Assembly (NCBI GenBank): GCA_963971405.1 | Contig: OZ020489.1 | Coordinates: 31,460,290 to 31,524,289, forward strand | DNA from: Psococerastis gibbosa | Lineage: Eukaryota > Arthropoda > Insecta > Psocodea > Psocidae | DNA length: 64,000 nt | Direction: 5' to 3' | The notes under the pieces: model-generated | Told to the model about the DNA's origin: nothing | The model's input: only the letters and a program-made list of their open reading frames with translations | Databases searched by the model: none | Position numbers and translations under genes: made by a program | In this document: piece by piece, positions 685 to 63,462 of the stretch | Numbering within the stretch: position 1 is the stretch's first letter | How the letters are laid out: each line of letters starts with the position of its first letter

Positions 685-1062
685 GGCGGGGTTTCCACCG
701 ACCTATCGTTGCAGAATGCACTTACGTTGACGTGGTAGCAGACATTCAAGACTTAGGCCGCGTTTCCACCGACCTCGCATTGCAGAATGCACATGACATT
801 GACGGAAATTTTTGTTTTACTCTATGCCATTGTTAAAATTGATCAATGATCATAGAGTAAAATCACAAACTAAAATTAAAAAATGGCGTCATGGGATATG
901 TTAAGTACAAACATTTTAATAGATTTCTATAAAAAGAATAATTCAGTGTCATTTGCATTCTGCAATGAGAGGTCGGTGGAAACCCCGCCTAAGGCTTGAA
1001 TGTCTGCTATACCACGTCAACGTAAGTCCATTCTCCAATGAGAGGTCGGTGGAAACCCCGCC
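685..1062. mobile_element. composite hairpin MITE: type-B outer arms carrying an inner type-A MITE (756-989)
   Basis: The ends are GGCGGGGTTTCCACCGACC and its inverse, flanked by TTA (left) and TAA (right). The outer arms run through a GCAGAATGCACTTACG segment to the core TGACGTGGTAGCAGACATTC. They are interrupted in the hairpin loop by a second GGCGG element at 756-989. The inner element has its own inverted ends and an AT-rich centre (CTCTATGCCATTGTTAAAAT through GGCGTCATGGGATATG). There is no coding capacity, so it must depend on a transposase supplied in trans. The TWA-like flanks recall PIF/Harbinger MITEs; that assignment is inference. Confidence 0.85.
756..989. mobile_element. type-A MITE, inner copy
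   Basis: This roughly 234-bp element starts GGCCGCGTTTCCACCGACC and ends with the inverse of GGCGGGGTTTCC. It sits exactly in the loop of the outer type-B element. It has the same centre as the inner elements near 7.8, 16.3, 29.0, 32.3 and 49.8 kb. Confidence 0.8.
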
Positions 1063-1699
1063 TAATACATAATGCAATCATCCACTTAGAGAGAAATTTT
1101 TTGACAAATAGAACCCACGTCTGCCATCCCTACAAAGTGCTACTATAAAATTGTTCTGTTAACATTTTTAGCCCCAGGTTAAGTATTATTCTTAAATGAC
1201 ATGGTAGACCCGCTGGTTAGGTTTAGCAGAGATTATTTTACAATTGGTTGGAACATTGGACACATAAAACACCAATTATTGTCTTACAATACCAAAAAAA
1301 TTACCACGAGCCGCCACTGATTTAAAGGAGCCTTGCTGACAACCGCCACTGATGAGTGAATGGAAAATGTTTTGCATTTGCACACACTGCTGATGGATCC
1401 CTTATAATTATAAGGTCAAAATATCAAGCTAACAAATAGATAATTAAGTTACCTACTCATGGCTTTATGATATTTCATTTTAATGAACAAACAATAAATA
1501 AGTGCTTTGTTAGTAAAAAAATTACTGAGCTTGAGCATTGCATTTGCATCTTCTCTTCGGGTTGAACATATCTCAAATCGTTGATAAGGTGCAAGTGGGT
1601 TCCGCTTAATTCTTTTAACTAATGTTAGTGGATTTTATTTTCAAAATTAATTTTTTAACGTTTATTCCATTCATATTCGTTTACATAACAAGTTTTATT
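1063..1699. other. no gene recognised
   Basis: AT-rich sequence with a short repeated phrase GAGCCGCCACTGAT/AACCGCCACTGATG near 1310-1352. No supported coding exon or mobile element was found. Confidence 0.4.
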
Positions 1700-2325
1700 A
1701 ATTTAGCTTTATTGCTTTCCTATTTACCTAGTAAATTTATAAGGAAAGCTTTCTAATGGTCAAAATGTTCGAGTCAGAGATTTCAACGGATTTACACGTT
1801 TTGAGGTCCCAGGCACCCAAAAAAGTGGTTCGCATAATTCACATATATTGTAGTCAGTAGTAATGTTAAGAAAACGCAATGGGTCGCTTGCCTCTTGGCA
1901 GTTAAGTTACCACTCAATTTTCATGAAAAATGACTAAATAATAATTAGGCATGCTGCGGAACTTTTTATGGATGCTCTTCGGGTATGTTTTAGGTGTTAA
2001 ATATAGTAAAAAAAACCAACAGATTGTTTTCTCAAACAAGGATTTGGTTCTGTGCGAAAAATTATAGAAAATTCATGCCCCGTTACATTGCATACCCTGC
2101 CATTATTACTGTGTTGTATTTAATTGGTCAGCACGTTCTAGAATGTAGACTATTCAATCGTCCCATCGATCAGTTCAGTGCTTTGCGATAGGGAAAGGTG
2201 TGGCAACCGAAATTTAACCATAGAAAAATTATTTACTATGGAAGTACTCATATTATCTATCTACTAAGTGATAAATAGGAAAGCATTCTTGAGTAAACTC
2301 GGACCGGTTCTTTATTATTTGTTCA
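1700..2325 (+). repeat. R1 interspersed repeat, internally deleted copy
   Basis: It begins near TTTATTGCTTTCC. It contains GAGATTTCAACGGATTTACA and GTTTTGAGGTCCCAGG, jumps over the TCTG tract region, then continues through CCTGCCATTATTACTGTG to AAACTCGGACCGGTTCTTTA. The same start and end phrases occur in the 37.1-38.0 kb copy. It does not encode a protein. The TCTG microsatellite present in the other copies is missing here. Confidence 0.75.
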
Positions 2326-2329
2326 TAAT

Positions 2330-5300
2330 GTCATAAGACATAAACATAAGACAGAAGACACTCACCTAATGGCATTGCTTAGCATGTTCCGAGGTGATCT
2401 TCAACCGAGCAGGCGCCCTTCAGTGAATTACTTCCTCCCTAAAATTCTATTTGCATAAAATGTTCTCCATGTCAATTGCCAGTTAAAACGTCTCTCCCAT
2501 TTCTTTATTGTAAATGGACTCAAAGTCAAAAATAAACTGTGCCAGCTGTTGTTGACTAAGGATTATCCTTTAAAAATTGCCCTCCATAGGCCAAATTATA
2601 CCAAGTAGGCAAATTAGTGTTGGCTCAACATAATAGAAAATTGTTTACACTCTGTGGTCCAGGCTTTCTCGTGCAAACTTCTGATAAAATCAATTTTATC
2701 TTAACTTATGCGGTACTCAAATAAATTTTTCTATAAAAAAACTCAATAAAATAGAATCATACTGAAATAAGCTTTCACTTCTCAGATCTTACCATAACCA
2801 ATTATTCACTTCAAACTGCCATAAATTTCAGTTAATGTAATTTGTTGAATTAATAAGTGCCCCATGTTTTTAGGAGTACCTAATATATCTGAATAGCAAT
2901 TTGTAACCGCATCATGCGTATATTTCATTGATTAAATCAATTATTAAAAAAATCCTAATTCGAAATGTCTTAACTGTAAGGTATGCTTACGATACCTACG
3001 CAGAGGTTCTGCAATAATGTGCATATATTGTGCTAGTTTCTAGAAAACAGTAATAATAATATTCTTTGTAACTAATAAGTTACAGACTTGGTGGAACCAG
3101 CAGCGACAGTACATGCTGAATTTGTTAACGACGATTCTGTTTTCATGATGGATACATTTTTTGAAGTCAGTGATTTTCATAATCACAGGTACAAACAACA
3201 GTCAAAGGCTTCAATTATGTCATGGAAAATCTTAATTTTATGAACCGAAACATAAAATGATATTTCAAATGATGTGTTTCTGTTTTCTTTAACAGCCCAC
3301 TTAATAATTATTTCCATCTCTCAGTTTCATACGATTTCGGAACGAGCATATTATGAAATGTATCATTTTTTTTCTTGTGAATCTTTCACCATGAAACGAA
3401 TATAATGGTCATAATCAAGCTTTAGCTGAGACATAAAGTATGTATCACTGCTAAGAATTTGAAATAAATCAACTGTTAGGTAATATTCAAATTATCTCCG
3501 GCTATATAATTCACTTAAAAACAAATGAATAGCCGTAATTATAATTTCAACAACAATGCTTCCTGCAAATTCTATCAGAATCCACGCAATGATGAATTTT
3601 TGATTCATTACTCCTGTTGTCAGGCTAAAAAGATTGAGGATTTCAACCAATTCAAACAACGTGTTAAATTAATGAGAAATTAGGTACCTACTAGACCAAC
3701 ATAGTTATGTTCCGTATGTATTAAGGCAGAGCAGAGATTTCATTATATTTTGGAAACAATTTGAGAACAGGTCATTCTGACGAAAGTAATTAATTCCTCG
3801 TTCCACAACTGTTAAGTAATTAATATGAAATTATGAAAAATTGATTGAAAAAAAAATAAGCCTTCTCAATAAATATTCTTTTATAAAGAACTTGTCCAAC
3901 TTCTATATCTGACCACTTTAAATGGCTTTACTTTTTGCACACTTACGATTGCTGAGAACGTGGCCTGTTTTTATAGAGATAGACTGCTTTTTGAGAAAGC
4001 TTGAATAATTAGTACATTTTTAATAAGACCAATTTTGTATAGTTTCTTTTTGGCCGTGGGAGGTAATGAATTTTGTCATAATAATTTAGTCTCCAAATTG
4101 TTTACATAATATTTTGACATTTCAGCCTGATAAGCTTTCAGGGATGCAAATCAGCAGTTCCCGAGTGGCGACATCCAGTCGAAGCGAAGGTGTCTTTAAT
4201 TAGCTTACCGAACGCATATTTCGAGTATTTAACTGCGGCAACTATGTACAACAACTAATATCAACACATTAAAAGGTGGGTTCAATTGCCTGTGTACCCT
4301 TACTTGTCGCAAGTAGCATAGGAAAAGCTGCGTCCTTCATGGCAGACCAAATACCTTCACATTTATTTTACAGAAGACCTTAAAAATCAATTTAATATGA
4401 ATTCGACCGCTGGCAATTGGGCGCATTTGGCAGTGACTGTCACAGAAGGTCGATCTTAAACATCCTGCTATCTTTTATACTTGAATTACGTACCAACTTT
4501 ATCAATTTGTGAAGGATCCAAGAATGAAACCATTTTGCTTATTACACAATCCAATGAAGAGCATTTAGTGAAATGCTTTTTGATTCTCATCGCGAAGAAA
4601 TTGCCATGTTGCATGAATAACAGTTCTTCTAAAACCAAACCCAACTAGGATTGTAGATTCACTAAAAATGCCCATCGCTTTCGTGATCTAGGCATTTTGC
4701 AATAACTCAGAAACTACTACAAGATTCGTGCTGGCTGATCTCAAATTTTTAACGGTTATCTTGATAGTGTACACAGTTAATATCTGAGCCTTAGTTTTAA
4801 ATGATCGTACACTAGTTCTGGTGTGTTCAAACGGATAGCCAGCTTAATAAAAAAGTTACCCATATTGTACTCATTAAAAACAATGAAATCTTCCAATTCC
4901 AATACTTCCAATAATGCCTACGCATTATTCCATTTCTCAAAGTTGTAGAACACGGGGGATATATATATATATATGGCGCTCGTACTAAATACGAAATTTG
5001 GTAGTATATACCTATATACAATAAAACAATAACCTATTCTAAAAATATATAAAAGTAGGCTAGCTACTTTTAGTCCACTGAATTAAAATAAATTAAAAAG
5101 TGCTACTAAAGCTACTAAAATTCAAATTTGAACAATTTTAGCTTTGGTCATTTCTTAGTAAAAAAAAAAACGTATAAATTAAGCGTATAGTTCAAAAGGA
5201 AAACTCAACCAACCAAATAATATACGCAATATTTTCTGGCAAGTGGCCAACTGAATTATTAAATATTTTTATCTTATTGTAATAATTAATAAATTAGAAA

Positions 5301-5890: not shown

Positions 5891-5894
5891 AAAA

Positions 5895-6451: not shown

Positions 6452-9400
6452 CTGTAAAACAAACAGTCCATTATTTCCTGCGATAATAAAATAGAATAGA
6501 TGGCGCCTAGCCATAAGCTAAGTATGGCCAATAGCGGGCAAACGAAGGGGGAAATGTCATAGGAAATGTTTCCTGTGGGGTTGCAAAAAAAGAAAAATTA
6601 GACAAATGAAAAACATAATAAATAGTTTAACAGGCAGGGCTGACAATAGAACTCCAACGCAGTAAGTTCTGCGCACTTGATCTTAATAGCTTGATTTTAT
6701 GACTTTGTTGGGCTTATGGCGAAAACCACCCGCTTAGACAAGGAAACAACTTTTTAGTGTTTCATTGCATGCGCTGTGGCCAGCCTGATTATTTCTAAAA
6801 AAGACAAATCTACCTACAGCAGACCTCCCTAACATTCTTCATAGTTCGGAATGTCTCGATGGATCGGATAGGTCGTTAATGTTGTCCATAAGAGCTGACA
6901 TTGACTTGCGATTAATATCCTTTCAGATGCATAAGCATTAGCTAGCATTAGTTAACAAAATTGGCTTTTTAAATATGAGCAAATATCGCTACTTCGGAAG
7001 AAAAAAAATAAGCATTAGTTAGCATTAGTTAACAAAATTGGCTTTTTAAATATGAGCAAATATCGCTACTTCGGAAGAAAAAAAATAAGCATTAGTTAGC
7101 ATTAGTTAACAAAATTGGCTTTTCAAATATGAGCAAATATCGCTACTTCGGAAGAAAAAAGACTCAACTCAAAAATTATCGATTTCAACTTAACAATGCT
7201 AAAATACATATTTTTTAATATGTATTTTGCAAGAAAAACGGCGTTAACGTAGTGTATATTTTCCGCGCGAGGGCAGTTGTATTTGGCGGGAACTGTCAAA
7301 TTCATTAAAAAAAACTTCAATTTCTGTAAATTGATAGATTTAGAGTTGTGTCCTCTTTCTTCCGATGTAGTAATTTGACTGAAAATTAGTTATAAATATT
7401 CTCACCGTAGCTGGTGGTGGCGTACGATGAAGAATCATAAGTCTGCGGGGCAGTGTAAGAGCTAGTTGCAGTTGTATAACCGTAGCTGTCCGCTGCTGCT
7501 GTAATACAGATACCTTTAGACATATTTCAAACCTCAAGGATTAGTTTACAATAAATGAATTTCACGACAGGGGTTAATTGTTGGAAGGGGTTTCTAGAAA
7601 TATTCTAAGTAATATAGAACCAGCTATAGAGGAATATTAGAAATTGCAATGTGTGCTCGGTGACGTCACTGCTCCAGATATGTCTAAAACATGGATGTTA
7701 TCAGCAAGCAACAACAATCATAAGGTGCCCATTCCACCGACCGGCTAGGGCTATTTACAAAAACGGTGACGTGGTAGCAGACATTCAAGACTTAGGCGGA
7801 GTTTCCACCGACCTCGCATTGCAGAATTGACGGAAATGTTTATTTTCCTCTATGCCATAGTTAAAATTGATCAATGATCATACAGTAAAATCACAAACTA
7901 AAATTAAAAAATGGCGTCATGGGATATGATAATTATAAACATTTTAATAGATTTCTATAAAAAGAAAAATTCTAATTTCCGTCAATGTCATTTGCATTCT
8001 GCAATGCGACATCGGTGGAATCGCCACCTAAGTCTTGAATGTCTGCTACCACGTCACCGTTTTTGTAAATAGCCCTAGCCGGTCGGTGGAATGGCCGCCT
8101 AACAAACGCGTACGAACCTGCGGGTTTTTGGTAGTTGTAGTCATACTGAGATTCTGCCGCTGCACCATATGCACCTAAAAAAATTAAATTAAATTACAAA
8201 ATAACACATTCGACTAAGATTGTCTCCAACCATCTTATTAGTCGATTGGAATCAAGAGGCCAATTTATCTGCTGCCAGTATTTACTATATCCCAAAACAC
8301 AGGATACTGTTAAGAGAAAGACCACCCCAAAATAGGTCAGTTTATAATTTTTATTCAATTTAATACTTAGTTATGAAGATTTGGTCTATTCAAGTAGATG
8401 AGGACTACTCATATTTCATACACCATATTATAAAGTGTTTTTCATTTTACTATGTATGAGATAGTCCTCTGTAAAACTTAAGTATTAAATTAAATACACC
8501 AACCGAATTTGGGGCCATCCAGAGTGTGGCCAATGTTGAATGCTTACGCTTTCTCTAAAGTTGTCTCACGCTTTTGGATTAGGGTAAATTAATGCCAGCA
8601 TCAGTTATCAAGTTAATTCACCAAGAATGATCGGAGCTTCATTTCAGCAGATTCACGTTCTTACAAGCAATTTAGAAAATTTCCAACCAGTTGAGGACAG
8701 CTAGAGACAGTTAGATATTAAAGATAGAACGAGAACGGAATTAGAACCACATTGTCTGGTGATGACAAATAAGATGAAGATAGTGTCACCACCGAGACAG
8801 CTGTCATAATTTTAAAAAATGATTTTGTGGAATTAAGGGCAAAGTTATTTATACTTAATTCTTATTTGTTATGTATCACTTTCACGAAGTCACTGGAGAA
8901 ACTCTCTCATGGATTTGCCTGGTGATATGCTGCCCGCCTGCCCCTACACCAAACTCGCCTCCGTCCAACTCCTTGAATGCTCTAATGGCGAGCCAGGTTT
9001 TGGCCGGTAACTTATTAACAGTCGAATCTGCAAGCTGCTGAGCTTACTACTAAGTTAATATACACTGTGTACACATTGAGAATAAAATAATTTTACAAAG
9101 TTATATTATATAACTTTACAAAGTTATTTTGTTCACAATGTGTGACAGTATGTTTTACTAAGTTAATAGGGAGACTATTGTGTATATGCACTGTGTAGTT
9201 GTAGTATGGCATGTAAATAAATATAGACTTTTTGTGTTCTGTTACTAAGCCAACCTAGCGGAGTTAGGGCTATAAGCCCTCTCTTACAATCATTATGAAA
9301 GCCCGGGACCGCCTGCTTTACATGCCCTCCGAAGAAAATATAGCAAGTGTGGGATCGAACCAACAACCTTTCGGGTGAAAGTTGGAGTCCGTTCCACTAC

Positions 9401-12400: not shown

Positions 12401-15400
12401 TGCGAGTTTTATGTTATTGTTGCAGACGTTCAGTTTCATTGACAAAAGAATGTTACACCTCAGTCTATTATTTGTAATTTTTTTGAAGGACTTTTTATGA
12501 ACCCAGGTTGCCCATTGGTCCCTTGTCTAATGCCAACGACCCCATGTATTTCGGACATTATTTATATTGTTTCCGTATGCATTTTTAGCCATTGGCAAAC
12601 TGGTATACCTGTCATATATGTCAACCTACACCGGCTACAGGCGATAATGGAGAAGCTGAGACAAGCTTACCATTGACGCAATGAAACAGGCGAAGGCACG
12701 ACTCAACCAAGTACAGATACTAGTCTCTGTCTATGATAGATTCAACTGTAAAATCCTGTATTTGTATAAAACTTGAGATGACTACAGGGTGCAATAAGTT
12801 AAAGTTATAATTACCAAATCCTTGGGGAGGTGGTCCTCTTGGGCCCATATTATGTCCTGGTCCACCCCTTCCGGGGGGTCCTCCTCGCCCAGGTCCTCCG
12901 CGACCTGCAATCGTAATATCGGCTGTGAAAACAATCTTGAAGAACAATGGTCTCATTATTTATTTTTTTATAATTGGTTTCAAGCTAGGGCTTGCTTATA
13001 CGCCCACCGAGTTAATTGGTGTTTCGATTGGACGTATTAATATATTAATGGGTTACACTGTCCCTGTAAGATCTTTAGTTCCTCTTTATTTGCTAAGCCG
13101 TTTAAGTTCCACTGAGTGAAACAAGTCAGCATCATTATTGTTGGACCAGAAATTGAAACGAATGAAACGAGGAAAAACGAGGAATTTGTTCAATTTGATT
13201 TTAAAAAAAAGATTAATCACATAGAAACAATTTAAAGAATGTATCCAATTACGGGCTGGAATAGACCAGTTTGCAGAGAATTGGACTATGTGATTAGGCG
13301 GCAATTCCACCGGCTATTTTACTTAATTTGTGATTTGAGATTTTTTGTTGTTTTGTTTTAAGGAGACTATTATGTAGATACTTAACTTATCTATTATAAA
13401 TTAAGTTATAATATGGTAGAGACTTATTAATGATGTCTGCTACCATATTATAACTTAATTTATAATAGATAAGTTAAGTATCTATATCATAGTCTCCTTA
13501 AAACATAACAAACAAAAAATTTCAAATCACAAATTAAGTAAAATCGCCGGTGGAATTGCCGCCTAAAAGGTCGACGTTGAAACTCAACATAAAGGGAAAC
13601 ATTTACCCCATGACCATGGTCCTAAATTTAATAGTTTAATAGTTACCTTACATTTATTGGTGGGGGAAAACGTGGCTAACGGGTATGTTGAATCTGGGCA
13701 TTTCCTTCTGCCATGAAAAGCTAAAGATTCTCCTTATTAGTGTGACAGTTATCTTGAATGGAAGGTATTACTGATATTCTGTATGAATGTAGTTTATAAA
13801 ATTATATCTCAATTTAAACTATAGTTGATATCTGCAGTTAGGTGTATGAGAAGGCCATAGACCCTAATCACGCTGTATCTGCCCAATTTTTTTTTTCAGT
13901 AAAGACTTTATTATTATTATTATTAAATATTTGCACCTTATCTCTTATTTAATAGTTAAAACCTGAGTGAAAGCCTAATAGGCGCTTCAGATGCATTCGG
14001 CAGAGTCGAAAATGACTCACCTCTATACATTCCACCACCCCTATCACCACCGCCCCGAGGGGGTCCTCCAAAATTTCCTCTCATGGGGGGACCACCGCGC
14101 CCCATGCCACCGCGTCCTGCAAATAAAAAGTTAAAATGAAAACTTATTACAAAAATATACTAGCGTGAAAGGGTAATTACCAAGCTATCATATTCTATTT
14201 TAAATGCTTGTGTCTGTATAATAGAAACTCATTGAGTGGAATCCATAGAAAGTAGCAAAATCTTTTTCTTCCTTGAACCTTTAGTAGTTCTAACATTTCA
14301 GCTTTGAAGCAAATACTTCATATTACGGATTCCCCTGATTATCTCGCCTTCTTCTTCCTTCTTAGTGCCGCGTGCGCAGCTTGAACGGGTCCATTTCTCA
14401 CACTCCATCCAGTCTGCTGTCATCGCTTTGAGCTCAACCACAGTTCCCCCCTTTTCTCAGTCAGTTTGTAAAATCTTTCTACGAGTGTTGTCCTCGGTTT
14501 GCTGACGAGCCGACGAGCCTCCGTCCATGTCGGTTCGGGTGTTCTTATCATTTCTCATTCTTTGGACATGGCCGAACCATTGTAGCTGCTTGGTCCCCAG
14601 TCTTCAGTCTTTTCTCTACTGATTCCCCTTGAAGATCTTGCCATATAAAATCATTTAGGATTATTTAAGAAATTTTAATTCAAGTTCATCTAAGTGAATG
14701 CATTGTATACAACTGGTAAAATATTGCAAATTGTAATTTTAACTTTGAAGGGAAATTAAGTTGTTAATATTGGCAAACCTTCTGGCCTTGCCTACATATT
14801 AGGACATTTGCAGTGGCGTGTGAACACTTTTTTCTTCGCTGTGCCGTTTCTTCAAGAGATAAAGTGACGTCACCAGGTTACGCAGAAACCTACCTTATAC
14901 GCCGACAATCTGAACATTAGGGGGTCGTCCTGTTTACTTTTTTTTCACTGGCGTTCCTTATATTTCTAGGAATAATCAATAATAAAATGGTTACTAACCT
15001 CTAAACATGCCGCCACCACCACCACCACCACCCCTGTCACCTCCCCGTGGAGGTCCGAAGTTTCCTCGCATAGGCGGGCCTCCCCCACGCCCAGGTCCTC
15101 CCCGACCTGCAAATTTGAAATTCAGGTTAAATGCAAGAAAAAAAAAACAACTTGTGATCTGCCATGAAGCAGTTCAGTTCATCTCAAGCCATTTTTTAAA
15201 CTTGCCCCTCGGGCGTCGTCACAATGGTCCTAAAACACAAAACAAAAATTTCGCAGTATTATCCTTGCGGACTCGCCAAAAATTCTCTGACCGAGTAGGG
15301 GTTTCAAAAGCTGCCGACGGACGGCCCCAGAAAAAAACTTTATATTATCCATAGCCCTGATCGCCCGGGGAAGTGTATCATATATGTATATCACACTTCC

Positions 15401-16193: not shown

Positions 16194-16224
16194 CTGCAAA
16201 AACGTTTATTATTTATTATTCTTA

Positions 16225-16528
16225 GGCGGGGTTTCCACCGACCTCTCCTTGCAGAATGCACTTACGTTGACGTGGTAGCAGACATTCAAGACTTAGGCGG
16301 GGATTCCACCGACCTCTCATTGCAGAATGCAAATGACATTTTTCTTTTTATAGAAATCTATTAAAATGTTCGTACTTAACATATCCCCTGACGCCATTTT
16401 TTAATTTTAGTTTGTTTGTGATTTTAGTCTAGTACCATTGATCAATTTTAACTATGGCATAGAGTAAAACAAGAACTTGCGTCAATGTCATGTGCATTCT
16501 GCAATGCGAGGTCGGTGGAAGCCCCGCC
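16225..16528. mobile_element. type-B left arm plus inverted type-A MITE, outer right arm missing
   Basis: The left arm matches the outer element at 685 (GGCGGGGTTTCCACCGACC, then CACTTACGTTGACGTGGTAG). A type-A element runs from 16296 to 16528, its centre reversed relative to the 756-989 copy. No closing type-B arm follows. Its left end lies 31 bp upstream of the exon A acceptor on the minus strand. Confidence 0.85.
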
Positions 16529-17051
16529 TTATGCCCTTATTATAAATTAAACAGAACAACTGTAAATTGCATTCGCATTTTCTAGTTATCTGGTGTGTTC
16601 TTATTTCTGCGTTGTTAATCAAAATTGACACCCAGGCATTTGACAAAAGCGCCTCACGTTGAAGACAGTTATGATTGCAATAAAATCATTTGTACATCAC
16701 ATGTATATGGAACGATGCGATGGCAGAATTTGACTATAAGAGCTGAGGTGACCGTAAAGTTGACTACCGGCATCAAATATTATGTTAGTTATCGCTATTC
16801 CCGGGGTATACAAATGGTAACTAAGGAATAACAAGAGAAATTGCTGCATTTTCAATCACAGTTATTACTTTATTAATCTTTTGTTAAGATGAAGCTATTA
16901 TTTAATTTTTTAAAAAAATAGCAACTATACGGTGTGTAATAAATTGTGTATGCCTACCTTTGAGTAACTTTACTAGTTTCCCAATTACGTTTAATAGCTC
17001 TAGAATAACTGTATCGGTTAACTGATAACTACAAAATAATATACATACCTG

Positions 17052-17075: not shown

Positions 17076-17183
17076 CGGCAACAAATAAATAAAACCTCCA
17101 GACTCAATTCAAATTATCAATAACGCAATGGAGGAAGAGGAACAGATACAGAAATATAAAATGGCGGATGCCGGAGTGTCTAA

Positions 17184-17320
17184 GGAGCTTCTCCACCGAC
17201 GTCAATAGTCGAATTAATGCTGATATTGACGTGGTAGCAGACATTTTTACACTGTCTTTAATGTCTGCTACCACGTCAAACACGTCAATAATCACAATTG
17301 ACATCGATGGAATAAGCGCC
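17184..17320. mobile_element. short hairpin MITE (137 bp)
   Basis: The ends are GGAGCTTCTCCACCGACG and an imperfect inverse ending AAGCGCC, with TAA on both sides. The core TGACGTGGTAGCAGACATTT ... TAATGTCTGCTACCACGTCA is shared with 24565-24706 and 55843-55984, but the middle arm GTCAATAGTCGAATTAATGC is not. Confidence 0.85.
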
Positions 17321-17324
17321 TAAG

Positions 17325-22123: not shown

Positions 22124-22210
22124 TGTGGCAAAGTAAAAGTACCACGTGCACTAGTAAGTAAGCAATAAGCAAAAACAATCGCAAAATAGTAAATATAGTA
22201 GGCTAATTAC

Positions 22211-24301: not shown

Positions 24302-27300
24302 CTGCAACAAAAATTAGGAATGTAAAAACACTGAGTCTAGAGTACGTTAAAGAAACATTCACTCTGCTTTACAAAATACACCCGGAAATTAATAATAAAA
24401 CCTATGGCTAGACTAGGTACGAGCCCCGGACAGAGATGAATCGAGGAGAATATGAAAAGAGTGGCTGCAAACCAATGGATAGATATGCGACAAAAATAAT
24501 GAAGTTAGGACATTATTGTAATTGTTCTAGAGGGTCTCCCCGTCTGTTAACTTAACTCTTACTAAGGCGGCAATTCTATCGACCTCGTTTTGCACCGTAA
24601 GCGTGACATTGACGTGGTAGCAGACATTAAAGACAGTCTAAAAATGTCTGCTACCACGTCAATGTCACGCCCACGGTGCAAAACGAGGTCGGTGGAATTG
24701 CCGCCTTAACTCTTCCTACCGGTACTAGGTGTTTTTTTAAGAAAATTTTTTCTGTTATTTTGCCACTATTTATTTTATTGTCATTGCCGAGGGTCTCCCT
24801 GGCTAACAGCATGTAACTCTTTCCCTACTATCTTTAAAATTATGATTTGTAACTTACTCGCCGGCGCCTATAGCTAAGGACTCATTGTTCCCTTTGATAA
24901 AGTACATATTGTCCCCAGTCCAGTGATATACGTTGAACTCGGGGTTGAACCTAAAGAGCAGAGACTCGCCGGTGCCGTAAAAATAGTCACTCATCTTCAA
25001 ACTGCACGACGTAATGGCACCAAACACCTGGAACAACACAGAATCAATCAATCAACTGACACTGCAGTTTTACCAAATTTCAAATACCGTACTTTCAAAT
25101 TCAATGCAGTGGAAGTTAAATCAATTCGACTATACTCTTTCATTCCACCATATAAAGCATTGAGACATGGCGGACTGGGCCTTGGATTATTTTAGCGGGA
25201 GGGTGGTCCCTCTCCCCCAAGTAGCCTAGTTGATGTAGTCAATTTATATTAAGAACTGGCGGGAGGAAGTTCTGGGGGTCTCCCCCTTGGGAAAAATTTG
25301 AAAATGGAGGGTGCAAAAATGCAAAAAAGTAGGTACGTTTTTAGGCATTTTACATGCATACATTAGACATACGCTACATCATTTAAAGCTTTCAAATTCT
25401 TCTCGCACAGAGAATTTTATGATGGATTTTTTCGTTTTTGTTAACTACAGAAATTTCATAGCATTTTACATGGTGGTTTTCATTTTTCCTCTCAAAATCC
25501 GATTTTATCTAGTATCAAGCCATTTCATTGGGGGGGGGGGGGGGTTAACCCCCATGAACCCCCTTTGGCTACGGCCTTGACTGTATGCATTAGAGCAAAA
25601 CTTTCTATGTAATACAAATACTCATGAACAATAATGTCACGCAAGCGACATAAACTTGGCCATTAAAGTCTGTTATCAACTTTACCTTGACATTGGCAAA
25701 TAAAGATTAAGCACCAATGGAGCAACTACAGCTTTCATTAAAGAAACTAGGTACCTCATTATTTTTATAGTGTTTTACTGAACATTAAAGGCGAGACAAT
25801 GAGAATGTCGAAGGACTGCAAGTCAGGGTAAAAAATAACAAATATTTTTAATTAACTGCGCGTTGTAAAAATTGCTTGTGGTCAAGTTTCCGAAGGTTCA
25901 GAGGCTATTGTAATACTTATTTAAACGTAGCCTACATGAAATGTCTAATGAAATATTAATCCTAGAGCTGTCAAAAATATCAGGACAAACAGAAGTAATA
26001 TTTCCGAGCATTTCGATATGCGATAAGCACCTTGTTCTAACACAGATTGGCCACAATGTTTGAATTTTACTTGCACACTTGGTGAAGTAGTCTCAAGGAA
26101 GGAGTTCATAAACTGTGGCAAATTGGTACAACAGTGCTACACTGGCCGCATGCCATAATATCTAAATGTAGAGGAGCATTTCTGCTATATTTAACGTTTC
26201 TGCGATTTCATGTTAAAATCGACTTAGTACACAGAGCGCATGGTGGGGCAGTTCAATTTGCTCTTCAAGGCATTTTTTATCTATGGTGCAATATCAAATT
26301 GAAGAATATAAAAACAAATCGAACGTCGCGACGGCGATAGTATGTAGAGACCAAATTTAATCACGTGTATCAAGAAACTCATCAGGCGACATAGATAGGT
26401 ATGGGCACAGATCAAACATCCGATAAGACCAGCGTAAACATATACGCTGATTATGTTATAAACGTGTCTGATATAGCCGTCAAGTTAAACATCATCTAAG
26501 ACACTGATATCTGCCGAAAAATTTCCAGAAATAAACCTATTGTATAACAAACGCTGTACAGATTTAAATTTAAATTAATCAGATATGGTGGTTAGCGGCT
26601 AATATAACGAATAAGCAGTCCCCGACCAAGCAGCGGAATAATCGGAGGGTGTGGCGGCAAGTCTGGTGGTGCAGGCTTGTCTAGAAAAAGTCACAGTAGT
26701 GACGGGGCGAGTAGTTGCCGCCACTAAATAAGCAACCACTACTAGGGTACTCTTTTGTCCTGGGGTTGGGAAACTGACCCCGAAGGCGGAGGAACTCAAT
26801 GAATAGTCAACGGCATAAGGATGCAGAAGGCAACGGGAAACCACTGCATTACAATTCCCTAGTATAGTCATCACAACTAAGTACATTCGATACTCTACAT
26901 ACTTGACTTCCTTTTGGGGAGTCCGAAGTACGGTATCTACGTGTTTACAATTTCCCTAATGTCTGATGATCGCCAAACTTCGATAGAAGAGGCATTCGAA
27001 GAAGAAGAAGAAGAATACAACTATTAGATAGCTCCTGTTTGGGTCAGCCACGAAAATATACCACAAACTGCCAACTTATATTTCTACTGTTGATAAGTAA
27101 CATTACAGCTCCCAGCCTATTTATAATTAAGTAGTAGTAGTATGGTTGGACACAGTCCCAGGCCACGGTGTGGGCCCATAGGACAGGGGACCTCCTGATT
27201 ATAATGGATTCCGAACCACTTGGGAAACACAGTGAAGTCACACGATTAGTTCGGAGGTGACCAGGACAAGTCCTACCATGTTTCCCTGTGCACACTACCA

Positions 27301-30300
27301 AGTTATCTACATCTTTGAACCTGCTCTGGTCCGCTGGATTCAACTTGGTAAGGCGGCCGGCTATAATTAGGTACCGGCACATACATTTTATAAAGTAACC
27401 CGAAAAAACAGCAAAATGACAATTCCAAGTGTATAGTAAAGTTATGACAGAATAGCCGATACTAATACCTTTTTGTCCAAAAACATTTACCATCCTGTTT
27501 ATTGTAAACCCCAGTTCAGTAAAGCCAGACCCCTTTTTGCCCACAACAACTTGTGGATGCATACTGTGCAGTAATAAGGAAGAGTCTATATTGTCATATG
27601 GTAAGCATAAAACAAGATAATGCACGTACGTACCAGTGGATACGCTCGCACTTTAATGTATAGTTTCATCTTTATTAATTACATAATTAAACCAAAAAGG
27701 GTCCGGGTTTACTGCATCTTGTTCAGTGGACAGGTAACCAACCGGATAGATGAAAATAAAGTACGGTACGGTACGACAAAAAAATAAGACGTGAGTCATA
27801 ACTGAGCAGGAAACCCGACGAGGAGTGGTTGAGGCTGTGTTTAGCGAAAATCCATCAGTGGTCTTAAGCCGGAACTCTCCGGGGGACCTCGACCGTAATA
27901 TTATGTACTTTTATGGACTAATCACTGATTATTAACAACGAAATGGGCTACTGCTAAGGCGGGCATTCCACATACGTACATCGTCAATGAAAATTATGAA
28001 ATTGAAGGACATTTCAATTTTACTCTATGCCATTGTTAAAATTTATCAATGATCAATTGATCATTGAGTAAAATCACAAACAATGAAACAAACAATCTAA
28101 AATTAAAAATTGGCGTCATGGGATATGACAAGTACAACTATTTTAATTGATTTCTCTAAAAAGAAAGCATTTCTGTATAAAAATTATAATAAGGTTTAAA
28201 TAATAAGGCGACAAAGAAAACAAATACAATTTCAAGAAACAAATGCAAACAAATTTCAAAAATTTGGCGCATACGCTTCAATTGAAAATTGTTAATTTTT
28301 GAAAAAACATATGGAATGGCCGCCTTCAATTTCATAATTTTCATTGACGTTGTACGTACATGGAATACCCGCCTAAGGATGGAGGAGTGGTCAATATAAA
28401 AGATCTTTTTGGCGCCAATCCATACCCGCATTTACAATATTTGGGTTGTTCCTTTTATAGTTAAGAAGCTAAAATTTAAAACGGTGTCAGATTCTCTTGC
28501 TCTGGGGAATAAAGGAGAGTAGTAAAATCACTACATCGCTCCTTGATTTGCCAACTTACTGTTCTATAACTGCAAAATGCTAAATTTTCAGGAGAGCGTT
28601 CCAAAGTTTTTTCCAGTGGTTTTAATCTATGTATCTCCTACACTTCACCCAAGAAATTTTCAATTTTTTATAGGCTTACAGATACGATGATTGGATTTTT
28701 TTATGTAATAAAAATAATTGAACTTTTGCAGTTAAAACAGTTGGCAAATCATGTTAAACATTATTGCCTACGCCCTACATGGATATTTGAAAATTGTGAA
28801 ATTTTGGGAAGATCATGACGACTTTTTGTCGAAAAAAGCAAGTAATTATTTATTGGTTTTTCTTCATCAACAGCTTTGTTGGCTTCAAATTTAAAAAAAA
28901 GGTAAAATGTCTTTGTCTACATTGAGGAAGACGACAAAATGAGTCACCCGCATTAAGGTGCCCATTCCATTGACCGGCTAGGGCTATTTCCAAAAACGGT
29001 GACGTGGTAGCAGACATTCAAGACTTGGGTGGTGTTTCCACCGACCTCGCATTGCAGAATTGTTTATTTTCCTCTATGCCATAGTTAAAATTGATCAATG
29101 ATCATACAGTAAAATCACAAACAAACTAAAATTAAAAAATGGCGTCATGGGATATGTTAAGTACAAACATTTTAATAGATTTCTATAAAAAGAAAAATTC
29201 AAATTTCCGTCAATGTCATTTGCATTCTGCAATGCGAGGTCGGTGGCACGCCACCTAAGTCTTGAATGTCTGCTACCACGTCACCGTTTTTGTAAATAGC
29301 CCTAGCCGGTCGATGGAATGGGCGCCTAATGACAGCGTTTAGACGCCTTTATTGGTTACCCAAATATAGTTCAAGGCAATGATGGAAGTCGGAAGAAGTA
29401 TACGGGTACTGTCATGGCTAAACGAGGAATTTACGAATTACCTGCTAATGATAGTATTTTTCGATAATGAGTTAAATAACAATCCGATTACCGGTAATGA
29501 AATACCTAGTAATAAGATTGACAGACTAAAAGGAAAGTTGAAAATGAAACTCTTCACCAATGGAGCTGAAATAATTTTCCCAAAAACATTTTATAAAAAA
29601 TTACGTATGTGCCAAATTTCCGCTCAATCGGTGAGCTACAAAAAATTTAATTTTCACCTTTCCTTTACCCATAAATAGACGTACTGTATCACACACATAA
29701 GTTGTAAGGTTTTGTCATACATACCATACCTTCAACTAATATTCTAATTAAATTCCCTTACTAATAACTCAGGGCCCCCTATTACACACTGGAATATTGT
29801 TCCAGTAAATATGGGTCTAAGAAAAAATATGGAAAACATAATACCTAATTTCAGATTTAAACCTTACACTTCAGCATAAACAATCCTAATATTTCTTCGA
29901 TCGAATAAATATTAGAGTGTATAGTCAGGGCAATGGAAAAATCCATAAACCTGGCATTCCATATGACGTCACAATCAATTTAGGTTAAAGAAGCATTCAA
30001 GATTGTGGTAATGAAGTGGTTTCGCAAGGCACGTTATTAAACCAAGGAGATCGCTACGATATTGCTCGGCAGACCAATACTTGACATAGGGCCCGTCCCA
30101 TCTGAGACTTACATCATAGCTGCATAGCTCAGATACCGTTCTGGGCACGCGCATACCACCCAGTTAAGCTTTATTGTACGTACAGGTAGGTTCCTCTGCC
30201 GTGGTGCAGCGTTGTGCTTGTGCTGGCCGTAAGGGCTCGTGGGACCCCCTTGATCAAAAACCACTTCATAGGACAGACGTCTGACGAAGGCACAAATGGG

Positions 30301-35254: not shown

Positions 35255-35655
35255 TAAGAGTGTCCGTCCCGTAGGAAATGGGGACCCCAAAATCCGTTGT
35301 TTTCACAGACTTCTTATTTATAATTTAATTAACAAAGGAAGATACTAAAGCTTTGGGTCGATTTTAGTTGTAGAAGACTACATTATGCATCATATAATAG
35401 GGTATTTTTAATTTTTGGTACCGTAGCTTTTTATTAAAAATAATTCAGGGCTAAAATTTCAACTGAAATAGATACCATGAAAAAACTGCAAAACCAAAAA
35501 TTAATAATATCCTATTATATGATGCATAAAGTAGTCTTCTACCACTTAAATGAACTAATATTTTAATAACTTGCTTAGTTAATTAATTTAAAAATGAGAA
35601 GTATTACATTGCAAGCAGCCGATTTCTTACGGGTCGTACGTACACGACTAACTGC
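35255..35655. mobile_element. fold-back element, family FB2 (decayed)
   Basis: It starts TAAGAGTGTCCGTCCCGTAG. It contains the inverted pair GTAGAAGACTACATTATGCA / ATGCATAAAGTAGTCTTCTA. The right end CTTACGGGTCGTACG is diverged. It is related to 60518-60868. Confidence 0.75.
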
Positions 35656-35979
35656 ACAATTGGTTTTCCACTAACTTAAGACAAGCCATTTTCTAAATGA
35701 CACCATTCACTTTGATTAAAAAAAATTAAGTGCATCCATTTGTATTTAATTTAATTTGACTGTATACCTGTATCTTCAACCATTAGTTCAACTAGAAGTA
35801 GAAGTAAACTGTACAGTAAATGAAACAGGGATATTCTACAAAATTATGTCATTGAGTCCCCCCCCCCCTCCTCCCCCCAAAGACCCAAACTGTGGAAACT
35901 ATGTGTTATGTAGGTTTTACTCAGTTTTACAGAGTTTTATGGTTCAATGTCCCATTCTGGGAAGTAGAAAGCCACTTTA

Positions 35980-36398
35980 GGCGGGTATTCCACATACGTA
36001 CATCGTCAATGAAAATTATGAAATTGAAAGACATTTCAATTTTTCATTGATGGCGGCCATTCCACATGTTTTTTCAAAAATTGACAATTTTCTATTGAAA
36101 CGTATGCGCCAAATTTTTGAAATTTGTTTGCATTTGTTTCTTGAAATTGTATTCTTCGTCGCCTTATTATTTAAACCTTATTATAATTTTTATACAGGAA
36201 TGCGTTCTTTTTAAAGAGATCAATTAAAATAATTGTACTTGTCATATCCCATGACGCCATTTTTTTAATTTTAGTTTGTTTGTTTGTGATTTTACTCTAT
36301 GATCAATTGATCAATTTTAACAATGGCATAGAGTAAAATTGAAATGCCCTTCAATTTCATAATTTTCATTGACGATGTACGTATTTGGAATACCCGCC
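35980..36398. mobile_element. type-D composite hairpin MITE, opposite orientation
   Basis: The ends are GGCGGGTATTCCACATACGT and a slightly diverged inverse; the flanks are TTA and ATA. The inner single end GGCGGCCATTCCACATG lies on the left, and the type-A centre runs in reverse. It is the same build as 27958-28373. Confidence 0.88.
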
Positions 36399-37127
36399 AT
36401 AGGAAAAGCAATAACCTAGTCTTGTGAGAACTGCAGTATCAGGTGAACGGTCGAATCCATAGGAGATGGCTTGTAATAAACCTATTTCCTGGAAGGTCAT
36501 TGCTACCAACGGCCTCTTCTGCAATAATTAAACGAAATAATGCAACAAAACCGAGAATGAACTAGTTTAACGGTCCAACTAATAAATGGGCAAGACATAA
36601 GACGAACAATGACTGACCGTTACTCAGGACTCACTTTAACTACAGTAATTCAGCAGTCTAGACCTCAGCAAAAGGACGATAATAGTAACTTATTTAGGAT
36701 CATTAGATGCGTTGCACCAGCAGGCACCAGGCATAGCACAAGATACTGAGTTAACTTTTTACCGGGGTTAAACATTTGAAGAAAACAAATTTTTTTTGGA
36801 AGCTATTCGAAAATTGTATTTTTTGCATTTTTGACCCCGATAATATTAAATAAAGTTGGTACCTCATGCCATTGAATATATAACACTATAGAATGGTCAC
36901 GACGGTCAAATATTGCAAACAGGCTTTTCTGGTGAAAAACCTACAAACTAGAAAAAAGGTTGGACGTCCCGCTGGTGTCAGCCCATTGTGCAATTCGTCA
37001 GGGTACAACTCGTCACATCTTTACCAGGGACGGTCTAAATACCCTCACTATGCAATACTCTCAATTTCTTCCTGCCCCTTCAATTGGCTGCCTATTTTAA
37101 TAATGGCCAGTGGTATATACTGTATAT
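36399..37127. other. no gene recognised
   Basis: Unremarkable sequence between the type-D MITE and the R1 cluster. Confidence 0.4.
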
Positions 37128-37990: not shown

Positions 37991-38158
37991 CTAGCATTGT
38001 ACTTCTGCTCAGCATAGGCTTTCCAACAATAGCTTATTTTAGAATTGCAGATGATTTAATTACACTTAATGGATCTACTGTAAAATACTAAATCTACCTA
38101 TTATTATTTTGAAGCCGTATATGAGAGCTTCTTCAAATTCAAATTGGAATAATGCTAA

Positions 38159-38330
38159 GGCGGCTATTCCACTGGTCAATTATACTTCAAATTTGATTTT
38201 GTCATTGACGGAAAATCTTCAATGATACTTTATTTATTTTTACACCACATTCCACTGGTTTTCAACAATTGATCATTTTTGTTTTCATTTTTTTCCAAAT
38301 TTGTAAGTTTGCCCGCAGTCTTTCTCAAAA
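38159..38330. mobile_element. truncated GGCGG MITE (left part only)
   Basis: GGCGGCTATTCCACTGGTCA starts a MITE-type terminus preceded by TAA. A second terminal-like ACATTCCACTGGTTTTCAAC follows near 38266. No closing inverse is found before R1 sequence begins. Confidence 0.6.
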
Positions 38331-48874: not shown

Positions 48875-49748
48875 TTGCATTGAGCTTAACATTAAACTCG
48901 TCAAGAAGTTCTAATCATTGTACCACGGGTAAAAAAAAAGTCATTTATAATACAATAATATTGGAACTATTGATCCCAATATAAGTGAGGAAACATGTAC
49001 TGTATATCGGGGAATATTCCACATGAAAAATGTTTAGCTGCGACGAAAGTCACGCAATGGGATTTCAGACACGCGAACTGAATCATGTATCTGCGGAAGA
49101 AGTAAAGCAGCATGCCTAATGGTATGCGTCAGGCTAGAATCTACATGCCGTGCAGCAGGTAGGCATCATGACGCAATGTTGCAGTCAAGTAGATAAGAAA
49201 ATAAATGAACGGTAGTACAATAGAGGCAACTTTTAAACAAGCAAGATAGAAAGAAACAGAAATCAACGTACAATGCAACTGAAATCAGAATTAAAGAACT
49301 CATTCAGGTGTAGGGAATAAAGAAGCGCTGAGGAAGCTGGTATCAACTATTCGAAGTTGAAACATAAAAAAAACATTTCTCCGGAATATAATAGCCGCTG
49401 GAGATGAAAGAATAACGGACAGCGCATGAAAGACAACTGAGATGTAATCCGCACCAGAAACGAGATAGGGGAAGAGATTGATGTTGAAGAAAAGGTCCTT
49501 GGTTGCAAAACGAAAGACCATGACGAGCGCTGCACAAAAGAGTCGGTAGACGCAAACTGTGCAGCTAGAGGAAGAATGGAAGATGCAACTAGGAAAGAGG
49601 TCAATGAAACATAATACAAAATGAGAATTAGACCGCTGAAGGATTGGAGGCATCTGAATTGTCTTTAGGACTAAAAAATGTGAATTGCACAGTATGTGCA
49701 ACTATATTGCACAAAAATTAAAAAAAAAAGTAGTTGATCTTGTGCATA
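48875..49748. other. no gene recognised
   Basis: Purine-rich on the plus strand between 49320 and 49680, which leaves long hydrophobic open frames on the minus strand without recognisable domains or splice context. Confidence 0.4.
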
Positions 49749-49749
49749 G

Positions 49750-50081
49750 TCGGGGTTTCCACCGACCGGCTAGGGCTAAATACAAATACCGTGACGTGGT
49801 AGCAGACATTCAAGACTTAGGCAGGTTTCCACCGACCTCGCATTGCAGAATGCAAATGACATTGACGGAAATGTTTGTTTTACTCTATGCCATAGTTAAA
49901 ATTGATCAATGATCATAGACTAAAATCACAAACTAACTAAAATTAAAAAAATGGTGTCATGGGATATGTTAATTACAAACATATTATTACATTTCTATAA
50001 AGAGAAAAAACAAATATTTCCGTCAATGTAATTTGCATTCTGCAATGCGAGGTCGGTGGAAACCCCGCCTAAGTCTTGAAT
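49750..50081. mobile_element. composite hairpin MITE (type-C arms, inner type-A), right arm truncated
   Basis: The left arm has the type-C CCACCGACCGGCTAGGGCTA and the core GTGACGTGGTAGCAGACATT. The inner type-A element runs 49820-50069. The right outer arm stops after AAGTCTTGAATG. Confidence 0.85.
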
Positions 50082-55192: not shown

Positions 55193-55842
55193 GCCAACTG
55201 AGGTCCTCAGCATGGCATCCAATTCATCATAGCCACCATGCCGGAACATTTAGCCTTGTCCCAAATTCTCGCATATGACAATGTAACGAAATATACTCTT
55301 CACTGCTATTATTATTGACGAATAATTAACTAATCGTGCAGGACCAAGTACCTAATTAAAATCCTCCTAGGCACTACAACCAGCTGAGGGTGCAGTCCTG
55401 AGGACTCGTGAAAGATTCTCTCATTGGACCATTGCACTATTTGGGATGTCGTGGTAGCAACATGCCCTGCAGCTTCGCTTTTCTCTTACCGGCGGAGGTA
55501 AGGTACCCATTAGGGATGAGTGGACCCGGCCCAGGTAGAAAATTTTTCCATTTTATCTCGAGTCACAAACTTACGTTTCATAGCACAACTGTCTATTCGG
55601 GTGCCAAAGTACCTAACAGGCGAATAAAATCTCAAAAGCTTGATTAGCGATTAAAGTAATGCTCAAAATAAGACTTGTACTACAAAATATTGAAGTAATT
55701 TAAAAGCTAGTAAGCTAGGTACTAATAGAAACTATACGTCAGATCAGGCTAAATTAAATTAATAATGGCGTTTATAATAACATTTCAAAATTAAATTTAG
55801 ATACTGTAAGTGCACTAAATTAATTATAAGATATTGTAATTA

Positions 55843-55984
55843 GGCGGGGTTTCCACATACGTCAATGGTCAATGATAAATGTGGTATTGACGTTTTAGCA
55901 GACATTAAAGACATACTAAAAATGTCTGCTACCACGTCAAAACCATATTTACCATCGACCGTTGACGTGTGTGGAAACCCCGCC
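55843..55984. mobile_element. short hairpin MITE (142 bp)
   Basis: The ends are GGCGGGGTTTCCACATACGT and its near-inverse, with TTA on both sides. The core GACATTAAAGACATACTAAA AATGTC (split by a space) and the following CTGCTACCACGTCA are shared with 24565-24706, but the middle arm is different. Confidence 0.9.
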
Positions 55985-55989
55985 TTAAA

Positions 55990-59490: not shown

Positions 59491-59494
59491 ATAT

Positions 59495-60517: not shown

Positions 60518-60868
60518 TAAGAGTGTACAGCTCGTAGGAAATTGGCAGCCCGAGATTTAATATTTTTCATTTAAATAACTAAGCATGTTATTAAAGATTT
60601 GGCTCATCAAGGTTGTAGAAGACTACTTCATGCATCACATTATAAGATATTTTTAATTTTCGAAATTGTAGTTTTTTCAGAAACATGCAAATATTTTATG
60701 AACAATAACAATATCGATTTTATAAAAAAACTACAATTTCGAAAACTAAAAAGTAGTCTTCAACAACTTTGATGAGGCAAATCTTTAGTATCATGCTTAG
60801 TTAATTAAATAAAAAATAAAAAGTATTAAATTTCGGGCTGCCGCTTTCCCACGGGCAGTACACTCTTA
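60518..60868. mobile_element. fold-back element, family FB2
   Basis: TAAGAGTGTACAGCTCGTAG at the left and CGGGCAGTACACTCTTA at the right. Inner inverted segments are GCAGCCCGAGATTTAATATT / AAGTATTAAATTTCGGGCTG and AAATTGTAGTTTTTT / AAAAAACTACAATTT. Related to 35255-35655. Confidence 0.88.
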
Positions 60869-60904
60869 ATAATTTAAGAAAGATAAACCTACGAAAAGGT
60901 AGAA

Positions 60905-61442: not shown

Positions 61443-61700
61443 TTGGTCGTAATCTATATATATATATATATATATAAATGTTATGTTGGTTTGTGTACGC
61501 TTCAAAAACTCAAAAAGTTCTGCACCGATCGAGCTGAAATTTTAGCATGATATATAATCCGCATCAAGGATTTTTTTATCTAATTGTTGCATCAGTCACA
61601 TATCCGCGACCGCGAAAAAAAAAAACGAGGAAAACAAGTCATGCGAGCCCCGAAGGGGCGAGCTGCGTAATTTTCAATAGAACCACGTTAGCTCCGCTTG
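61443..61700 (+). repeat. (TA)n plus conserved repeat segment
   Basis: A (TA)n run (61446-61474) leads into GTTATGTTGGTTTGTGTACG, CACCGATCGAGCTGAAATTT and ATGCGAGCCCCGAAGGGGCG. Segments with CCGAT...GAAATTT also occur in R1. It is probably part of a non-coding mobile element. Confidence 0.4.
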
Positions 61701-61704
61701 TAAA

Positions 61705-62980: not shown

Positions 62981-62984
62981 TGGC

Positions 62985-63080
62985 TCTTCATCCCTTGATG
63001 AGCATTGGCCTGTTCGACAACACCCCTCCAGTCATCTCGGCTTTGTATAACGCTCCACCATCTACAGACTCCCAACTCGC
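62985..63080 (-). mobile_element. LINE fragment, inverse of the 61.0 kb copy
   Basis: The minus strand reads GCGAGTTGGGAGTCTGTAGA, TGGTGGAGCGTTATACAAAG and CGAGATGACTGGAGGGGTGT, colinear with 61010-61080. Confidence 0.75.
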
Positions 63081-63244
63081 GAACATAAATAAATAAATAA
63101 GCTTATGAGTTGCCAAAAGACAAAGTCAAAAAACGACATCACTTACAATTTAAAACATAAAACAACACCCGAGAAACAAGCAGTCAAATTGAAAAGGAGA
63201 AAAAAAAGCATCTTATCGATTTGTCAAACGGATAACACGGCTAA

Positions 63245-63462
63245 GGCGGCTATTCCACCGACGTCGTTTTTCATTGTGCATGTGCATGACGTGGTAGCAG
63301 ACATCATTAATAAGTCTCTACCATATTATAACTAAATTTATAATAGATAAGTTAAGTATCTACATTATAGTCTCCTTAAAATATGGCAGAGACTTATTAA
63401 TGACGTCTGCTACCACGTCATGCACATGCACAATGAAAAACGACGTCTGTGGAATAGCCGCC
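63245..63462. mobile_element. hairpin MITE with second palindrome at its centre
   Basis: The ends are GGCGGCTATTCCACCGACGT and its near-inverse, with TAA on both sides. The arms carry CGTTTTTCATTGTGCATGTG and the core GACGTGGTAGCAGACATCAT. The centre matches that of 13297-13563. Confidence 0.9.

What the first reader, a model, noticed from the sequence alone, without database searches (positions are those of the whole stretch)
685..63462. Hairpin MITEs with constant ends and constant core but exchangeable, always self-complementary middle arms
At least eleven elements start GGCGG(G/C)...TTCCAC and most reach a common TGACGTGGTAGCAGACAT core. Between these two shared blocks the arm sequence is unrelated from element to element: CGTTTTGCACCGTAAGCGTG at 24.6 kb, CAATGGTCAATGATAAATGT at 55.9 kb, GTCAATAGTCGAATTAATGC at 17.2 kb, GGCTAGGGCTATTTACAAAA at 7.7 kb, GTCGTTTTTCATTGTGCATG at 63.2 kb. 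Both arms of each element still pair with each other. Point mutation cannot replace both arms in concert. A mechanism such as snap-back synthesis, hairpin-templated repair or template switching that rewrites one arm and copies it to the other would be needed. I know of no named MITE family defined by this modular pattern, but I cannot search for one.
Basis: partly seen in the sequence, partly recalled or inferred. Interest (0 to 1): 0.85.

Follow-up and report, generated by a model that had tools for sequence, protein, structure and literature searches.

The report
Harbinger MITEs with a shared centre
These hairpin-shaped repeats are small, gene-less relatives of a known kind of cut-and-paste transposon; their arms look exchangeable because arm sequences drifted step by step and because a short hairpin centre seems to have come to lie between the ends of several related transposon families.

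Summary
The pattern is real: constant ends, a core at a nearly fixed distance, variable arms between. The elements are PIF/Harbinger MITEs: 3-bp TWA target duplications (35 of 63 pairs match, permutation p 0.00015), GGCGG-NNN-TTCCAC ends, and a coding relative in the same genome with DDE_Tnp_4 transposase, MADF/Myb-like gene and such ends; the seven window MITEs examined keep the start of that MADF gene. Two claims need correction. Arms are not unrelated: 15 clusters are linked far better than shuffled arms and form two ladders. Pairing is not universal: the 17.2-kb exemplar pairs at only 0.60. Within a family the arms mutate independently and keep fixed differences, so per-copy arm rewriting is not supported. 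Instead the same arms occur with and without the core; an H-arm + core family (518 + 522 sites) has its junction at the same point in both arms, as if the centre had been exchanged. How both arms changed together in deeper lineages is inferred; homogenisation of inverted-repeat arms is a known process. Modest novelty.

The parts
682..1065 (+). Composite element, outer arm class A with core, inner core-less ends at 753-992; MADF-gene start (MASWDMLSTNILIDFYKK) from 883
7721..8102 (+). Composite element, outer arm class B with core on both sides, inner ends at 7792-8031; MADF-gene start from 7911; TAA on both sides
13294..13566 (+). Element with arm class G; degenerate core (3 mismatches) on the right side only
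16222..16531 (+). One-sided composite: outer arm A with core on the left only, inner ends at 16293 and 16531; TTA on both sides; MADF-gene start on the minus strand
17181..17323 (+). Short hairpin, arm class C on the left, a different arm on the right (middle identity 0.60), core on both sides
24563..24708 (+). Short hairpin, arm class D, core on both sides
27955..28376 (+). H element without core; MADF-gene start (TTG in place of ATG); matches right end of L057 and leader of L062+L060
28954..29329 (+). Composite element, outer arm class B with core, MADF-gene start from 29139
32225..32597 (+). Composite element class B, left outer end missing, core on both sides
35977..36401 (+). H element without core; MADF-gene start on the minus strand
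38156..38174 (+). Lone end of the same type; no partner end paired with it
49746..50072 (+). Composite element class B/A, outer right end missing; core on the left
55840..55987 (+). Short hairpin, arm class E, core on both sides (GG replaced by TT in the left core)
63242..63465 (+). Element with arm class F and core on both sides

Best explanation
They are non-autonomous PIF/Harbinger elements (MITEs) that would be moved in trans by a two-gene Harbinger relative of the kind present in the same genome. Shown by sequence: a 14-base end (GGCGG-NNN-TTCCAC) in TWA target sites duplicated over 3 bp; a coding relative with transposase, MADF gene and such ends; MITEs that keep the end, a piece of the 5' leader, the start of the MADF gene and the other end. 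Inferred: the ends are constant because the transposase cuts there; the distance of about 46 bases to the TTGACG boundary is kept by the protein-DNA complex, while the arm letters drift. Arm pairs stay alike over long times by occasional homogenisation in the few copies that found new families, not in every copy. The core belongs to a hairpin centre of about 42 bp (TGGTAGCAGACATTAAAGACAGTCTAAAAATGTCTGCTACCA) that has come to lie between the arm pairs of several families, most likely by template switching or gene conversion at the TTGA(C/A)G boundary during gap repair or replication. This gives 'constant core, different but self-pairing arms' without rewriting an arm.
For: Target duplication: 35 of 63 outer pairs match over 3 bp (permutation mean 22.2, sd 3.3, p 0.00015); only length 3 gives a signal (z 4.9); five pairs share a rare triplet (TAT twice, ATA, CAA, TAC). 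Coding relative: L057 has a DDE_Tnp_4 exon (97.1 bits, cut-off 24.8), a MADF exon on the other strand (33.3 bits, cut-off 22) and a right end CATTGACGTTGTACGTATGTGGAATGGGGGCC; the stretch leading up to it matches the H MITE at 87% over 195 columns (E 6.6e-54). L062+L060 has the left end TTAGGCGGGTATTCCACATACGTCAATAGTC and a leader that matches the H MITE over 45 columns at 82% (E 9.5e-6; layout). Start of the MADF gene: in 7 of the 7 window MITEs examined, out of 14 loci. Drift of arms. Shared centre: in 17 short hairpins of 8 arm groups, between groups arm 0.54, loop 0.73, whole centre 0.83 (116 pairs; shuffled loops 0.40); within groups 0.91, 0.90, 0.94 (20 pairs). Exchange: L021:1411-1559 has both arms identical to an H MITE over 51 bases behind the TWA but the core centre. 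Genome-wide this H-arm/core junction occurs 518 + 522 times at up to 1 mismatch (control 0); the 100 listed places form 41 pairs 47 apart, 3 other pairs and 12 singles. The same arm without core occurs 1,164 + 1,178 times. The A-inner arm with core occurs 534 + 540 times at up to 3 mismatches. Core presence changes at least 4 times on the arm tree.
Against: 28 of 63 outer pairs do not match over 3 bp; 17 of these are TAA facing TTA. No single copy was shown with both ends and both genes: L057's left end and L060's right end were not seen. Of 12 transposase places opened (each a few kb only), two show an end of this type that fits the element itself and a third a similar end; nine do not. The arm tree rests on 45 columns with 11 of 40 inner branches starred, and the 4 changes of core state were not compared with shuffled labels and cannot tell gain from loss. 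The loop between groups (0.73) is clearly less alike than within groups (0.90), so the centre has some age of its own. The equal-arm-difference argument is one base in one element. Within B elements the two arms are slightly more alike than arms of different copies (0.928 against 0.919, p 0.019), so some homogenisation is not excluded.
Confidence: 0.78

Rival explanations
1. Divergence in place: all core-bearing elements descend from one hairpin; ends, core and loop are held by selection for binding, the arms drift and are homogenised now and then, and the core was lost several times. No exchange of centres.
For: Arms form ladders with intermediates; the distance is constant in 90 of 100 listed arms; the centre between groups has itself diverged to 0.83.
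Against: The H arm is identical over 51 bases on both sides in an element with and an element without core, and both states occur hundreds of times or more; the coding relative's ends lack the core; the unpaired loop is more alike between groups than the arms.
Confidence: 0.2
2. One reading: snap-back synthesis or hairpin-templated repair rewrites one arm and copies it to the other in single elements, making new arm classes at one stroke.
For: The two arms of an element are alike (mean middle identity 0.93 in 47 elements) while classes differ (0.40); homogenisation of inverted-repeat arms by template switching is described for short repeats (PMC8604942, passages); a slight within-element excess in B (p 0.019).
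Against: Private changes are in one arm 64 times and in both 4 times in B, 24 and 1 in the E-type set; arm differences are shared by 7 of 9 E-type copies; the arms grade into each other.
Confidence: 0.1
3. Independent MITE families whose ends and core resemble each other by chance or convergence.
For: Mean middle-arm identity between classes (0.40) is about that of shuffled loops (0.40).
Against: Core 0.04 expected in the window against 18 found; reversed controls 0 genome-wide; arms linked above shuffles; shared loop; shared MADF-gene start.
Confidence: 0.02

Closest known systems
PIF/Harbinger MITEs (Tourist type; mPing with Ping/Pong)
   Same: 3-bp TWA target duplication, short terminal repeats, two-gene coding relative, internal-deletion origin (PMC2836001, PMC2213677, PMC12595863, PMC9710019: passages seen)
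   Different: Here a hairpin centre is shared across several arm families, many copies have a second pair of ends inside the first, and the exact core alone occurs 25,576 times in a 409-Mb genome
CMITE of corals (PMC2872659; abstract and Discussion read)
   Same: Internal region more conserved between families than the terminal repeats; a short end motif kept in all families
   Different: CMITE is piggyBac-like with a CC(C/T)T terminal motif; here TWA sites, GGCGG ends and a Harbinger coding relative, and the shared part is a hairpin centre with a junction at a fixed point
Template switching between inverted-repeat arms (PMC8604942; passages seen)
   Same: Would keep two arms alike
   Different: Described there for short repeats in yeast genes; here homogenisation in single copies is rare
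Pack-TIR birth by gap filling or FoSTeST (PMC8277862; passages seen)
   Same: New sequence placed between existing terminal repeats by template switching, then amplified by transposition
   Different: The filler here would be the centre of a related MITE, not host sequence

Membership tests
PIF/Harbinger superfamily | 3-bp TTA/TAA target duplication | tested here: met
   35 of 63 pairs match, p 0.00015, signal at length 3 only; 28 of 63 do not match
PIF/Harbinger superfamily | Short terminal inverted repeats (14-25 bp in PMC2213677) | tested here: met
   GGCGG-NNN-TTCCAC at both ends
PIF/Harbinger superfamily | Coding relative with DDE_Tnp_4 transposase and the same ends | tested here: met
   L057 (right end) and L062+L060 (left end); no copy was seen with both ends
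PIF/Harbinger superfamily | Second gene with Myb/SANT/MADF domain | tested here: met
   L057:3947-4180:- PF10545 33.3 bits over cut-off 22; its start in 7 of 7 MITEs examined
PIF/Harbinger superfamily | Moved by these two proteins | not testable with these tools
   needs an excision assay
MITE | Short, no complete gene, terminal inverted repeats, high copy number | tested here: met
CMITE (piggyBac-like) | CC(C/T)T terminal motif of piggyBac | tested here: not met
   ends are GGCGG in TWA sites
Superfamilies with 8-9 bp target duplication (hAT, Merlin, Mutator; recalled) | 8- or 9-bp target duplication | tested here: not met
   no signal at 8 or 9 bp with either boundary, z -0.4 to 1.1

The most novel reading that the evidence does not exclude
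New MITE families are founded by centre exchange: a hairpin centre of about 42 bp travels between elements and takes the place of the internal region between the terminal repeats of at least three Harbinger families, with the junction at the same base in both arms, after which the hybrid amplifies to hundreds of copies.
Probability: 0.5. Interest if true: 0.55.

Novelty: new variant of a known kind. Interest (0 to 1): 0.4.

Why it matters
If centre exchange is right, this genome offers many natural recombinants with mappable junctions for asking how MITE families are born and how inverted arms stay alike, questions usually out of reach because the parents are lost. Here a coding relative, core-less MITEs and core hybrids coexist. 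The set also separates, within one superfamily, what must stay (end, distance) from what may drift (arm).

Tried and rejected
8-9 bp target duplications: one locus (24,563) looked like one, but 63 pairs gave no signal. Core as an obligatory binding site: the coding relative's seen ends and the H MITEs lack it. Transposase families with open frames of 375, 382 and 384 aa (two of the opened copies with a THAP gene, one also with a YqaJ-like gene; recalled as ISL2EU-like): no end of this type fitting the element itself in the stretches opened; L050 holds an inserted hairpin MITE. L055 and L056 (one family, L056 with a MADF frame): no such end found in the stretches opened. Inner ends of composites as plain nested insertions: 21 of 27 read TTA...TAA, not a 3-bp direct duplication; left open. 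Full-text search with six strings of core and end: 18 papers, listing only, none on transposons by title; Repbase or Dfam could not be searched. The host species was not identified.
Full report
1. Observation. The window lies at G000:C14:31460290-31524289 in a 409-Mb genome of 68 contigs. The core TGACGTGGTAGCAGACAT is found 18 times with up to 3 mismatches (0.04 expected) and 25,576 times exactly in the genome, against 0 for the reversed pattern. In 301 kb of window and fetched stretches there are 145 cores with up to 4 mismatches; for 131 an end TWA-GGCGG-NNN-TTCCAC was recognised upstream, in 120 of them 45-48 bases before the core. Genome-wide, 4,849 arms hold exact end and exact core; of the 100 listed, 90 have 29-32 free bases although 20-50 were allowed. 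So ends, core and distance are constant. The sample is not random: ten 10-kb stretches flank the window, the other stretches were chosen at core matches on contig C1.

2. Arms. The 122 arms of normal length give 15 clusters at 80% identity. Mean identity between classes, left arm to left arm, is end 0.69, middle 0.40, core 0.93 (730 pairs); the two arms of one element give 0.93, 0.93, 0.94 (47 elements, pairs picked by best match). But the clusters are not unrelated: a spanning tree over the 15 has summed identity 9.45 against 7.20 +/- 0.16 for shuffled arms, largest 7.77 of 200; its weakest link (0.50) is no better than chance. A maximum-likelihood tree of 43 representatives out of 180 arms (core-less arms with a shortened middle were left out by a length filter) shows two ladders, D to A-inner to A to A' to B, and F to C to E to H, with 11 of 40 inner branches starred on 45 columns.

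3. What they are. Over 63 outer pairs the three bases on either side match 35 times (22.2 +/- 3.3 by permutation, p 0.00015); lengths 1, 2 and 4-11 give nothing. Sites are TWA, with C before them in 47% of 126 flanks. That is the mark of PIF/Harbinger (PMC2213677, PMC2836001, passages). A search of the own genome with PF13359 scored 150 of 220 candidates, all listed as above the cut-off. I opened 12 of these places, each a few kb. In L057 a DDE_Tnp_4 gene is followed by a convergent gene whose first exon is a MADF domain, and then by CATTGACGTTGTACGTATGTGGAATGGGGGCC, the right end. The stretch leading up to it matches the H MITE at 87% over 195 columns. In L062+L060 the same transposase family starts behind a left end TTAGGCGGGTATTCCACATACGTCAATAGTC, with two hairpin MITEs inserted behind it, and its leader matches the H MITE over 45 columns at 82%. 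L059, of the same family, has a similar end, TAAGGGGGATATTCTAC, before its transposase; no partner end was found in 6.3 kb. The other nine places show no such end belonging to the element; ends outside the stretches cannot be excluded. In the seven window MITEs examined (of 14 loci) the internal part reads MASWDM.STNILIDFYKK or close, the start of the MADF gene (L057: MASWDITSTTILINFFKK), once with TTG for ATG. So the longer MITEs are internal-deletion relatives of a two-gene Harbinger element.

4. How the modular pattern arises. (a) Arms of inserted copies mutate independently: private changes in one arm against both arms are 64 to 4 in family B (20 of 26 elements could be oriented; all four in L038) and 24 to 1 in 9 E-type elements. 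In the E-type set arm differences are shared by 7 of 9 copies, the other two being E'. A slight excess of likeness within B elements exists (0.928 against 0.919, p 0.019), so rare homogenisation is not excluded, and over long times it is needed. (b) The centre, with its mostly unpaired loop, is shared by hairpins with different arms: between groups arm 0.54, loop 0.73, centre 0.83; within groups 0.91, 0.90, 0.94 (17 hairpins). (c) The same arms occur with and without core. L021:1411-1559 has both arms identical to the H MITE L019:2267-2693 over 51 bases behind the TWA, including one base at which the two H arms differ, and the core centre after TTGAAGG on both sides. L022:6700-6847 has arms like the right end of L057 and the same kind of centre. 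Genome-wide the H-arm/core junction occurs 518 + 522 times, the H arm without core 1,164 + 1,178 times and the A-inner arm with core 534 + 540 times. The first 100 H-arm/core sites form 44 pairs, 41 of them 47 apart, and 12 singles. On the arm tree the core changes at least 4 times; the count cannot tell gain from loss and was not set against shuffled labels. The H case reads best as gain, because the coding relative lacks the core.

5. Mechanism, and what is inferred. Shown: superfamily, deletion origin, graded arms, shared centre, hybrids at hundreds of sites. Inferred: that the transposase complex holds the end and the distance (a subterminal 9-bp site of the Myb-like protein is known for Harbinger3_DR; PMC9710019, passages); that centres were exchanged by template switching or gene conversion at TTGA(C/A)G, a route like Pack-TIR birth (PMC8277862, passages); that arm pairs are homogenised now and then in founder copies (PMC8604942, passages). 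I cannot exclude that exchange is rare and that the core persists mainly by selection.

6. Known or new. It is a Harbinger MITE group. The nearest precedent I found for a core more conserved than the terminal repeats is CMITE of corals (PMC2872659, abstract and Discussion read), which belongs to another superfamily. Six strings of the core and end were found in 18 papers, by their titles none on transposons; four topical searches were seen as listings apart from the papers named here. Repbase was not available.

Noticed in passing
63 outer pairs in window and fetched loci: 17 of 63 elements have TAA on one side and TTA on the other; such A/T swaps of the middle base are far commoner than middle C or G (2 of 63). 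It may reflect how the TWA site is cut and repaired.
   Followed up: partly
window 682-1065, 7721-8102, 16222-16531, 49746-50072; L016:483-883: Nested ends: an outer arm plus core is followed by a second, mostly core-less end of the A-inner class (76 composite arms in the sample, one a chance hit). 21 of 27 inner or nested-context pairs read TTA...TAA. Some copies have the outer arm on one side only.
   Followed up: partly
G000 genome-wide: 150 scored DDE_Tnp_4 matches in many open-frame sizes (375, 382, 384, 328, 364 aa and others); of the opened copies L050 and L051 have a THAP gene and L050 also a YqaJ-like gene beside the transposase.
   Followed up: partly
window 40218-41297 and 18519-22150: A mariner-like open frame of 359 aa and gypsy-like open frames of 710 and 532 aa (the names are recalled, not searched).
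   Followed up: no
window 33949-34244, 35309-35602, 60518-60868: Other long inverted repeats with different ends, apparently other MITE families.
   Followed up: no
L018:7613-7780, L021:4805-4972, L062 (H'-type hairpins): One arm carries about 20 extra bases that the other lacks, in several copies: another shared arm difference.
   Followed up: no
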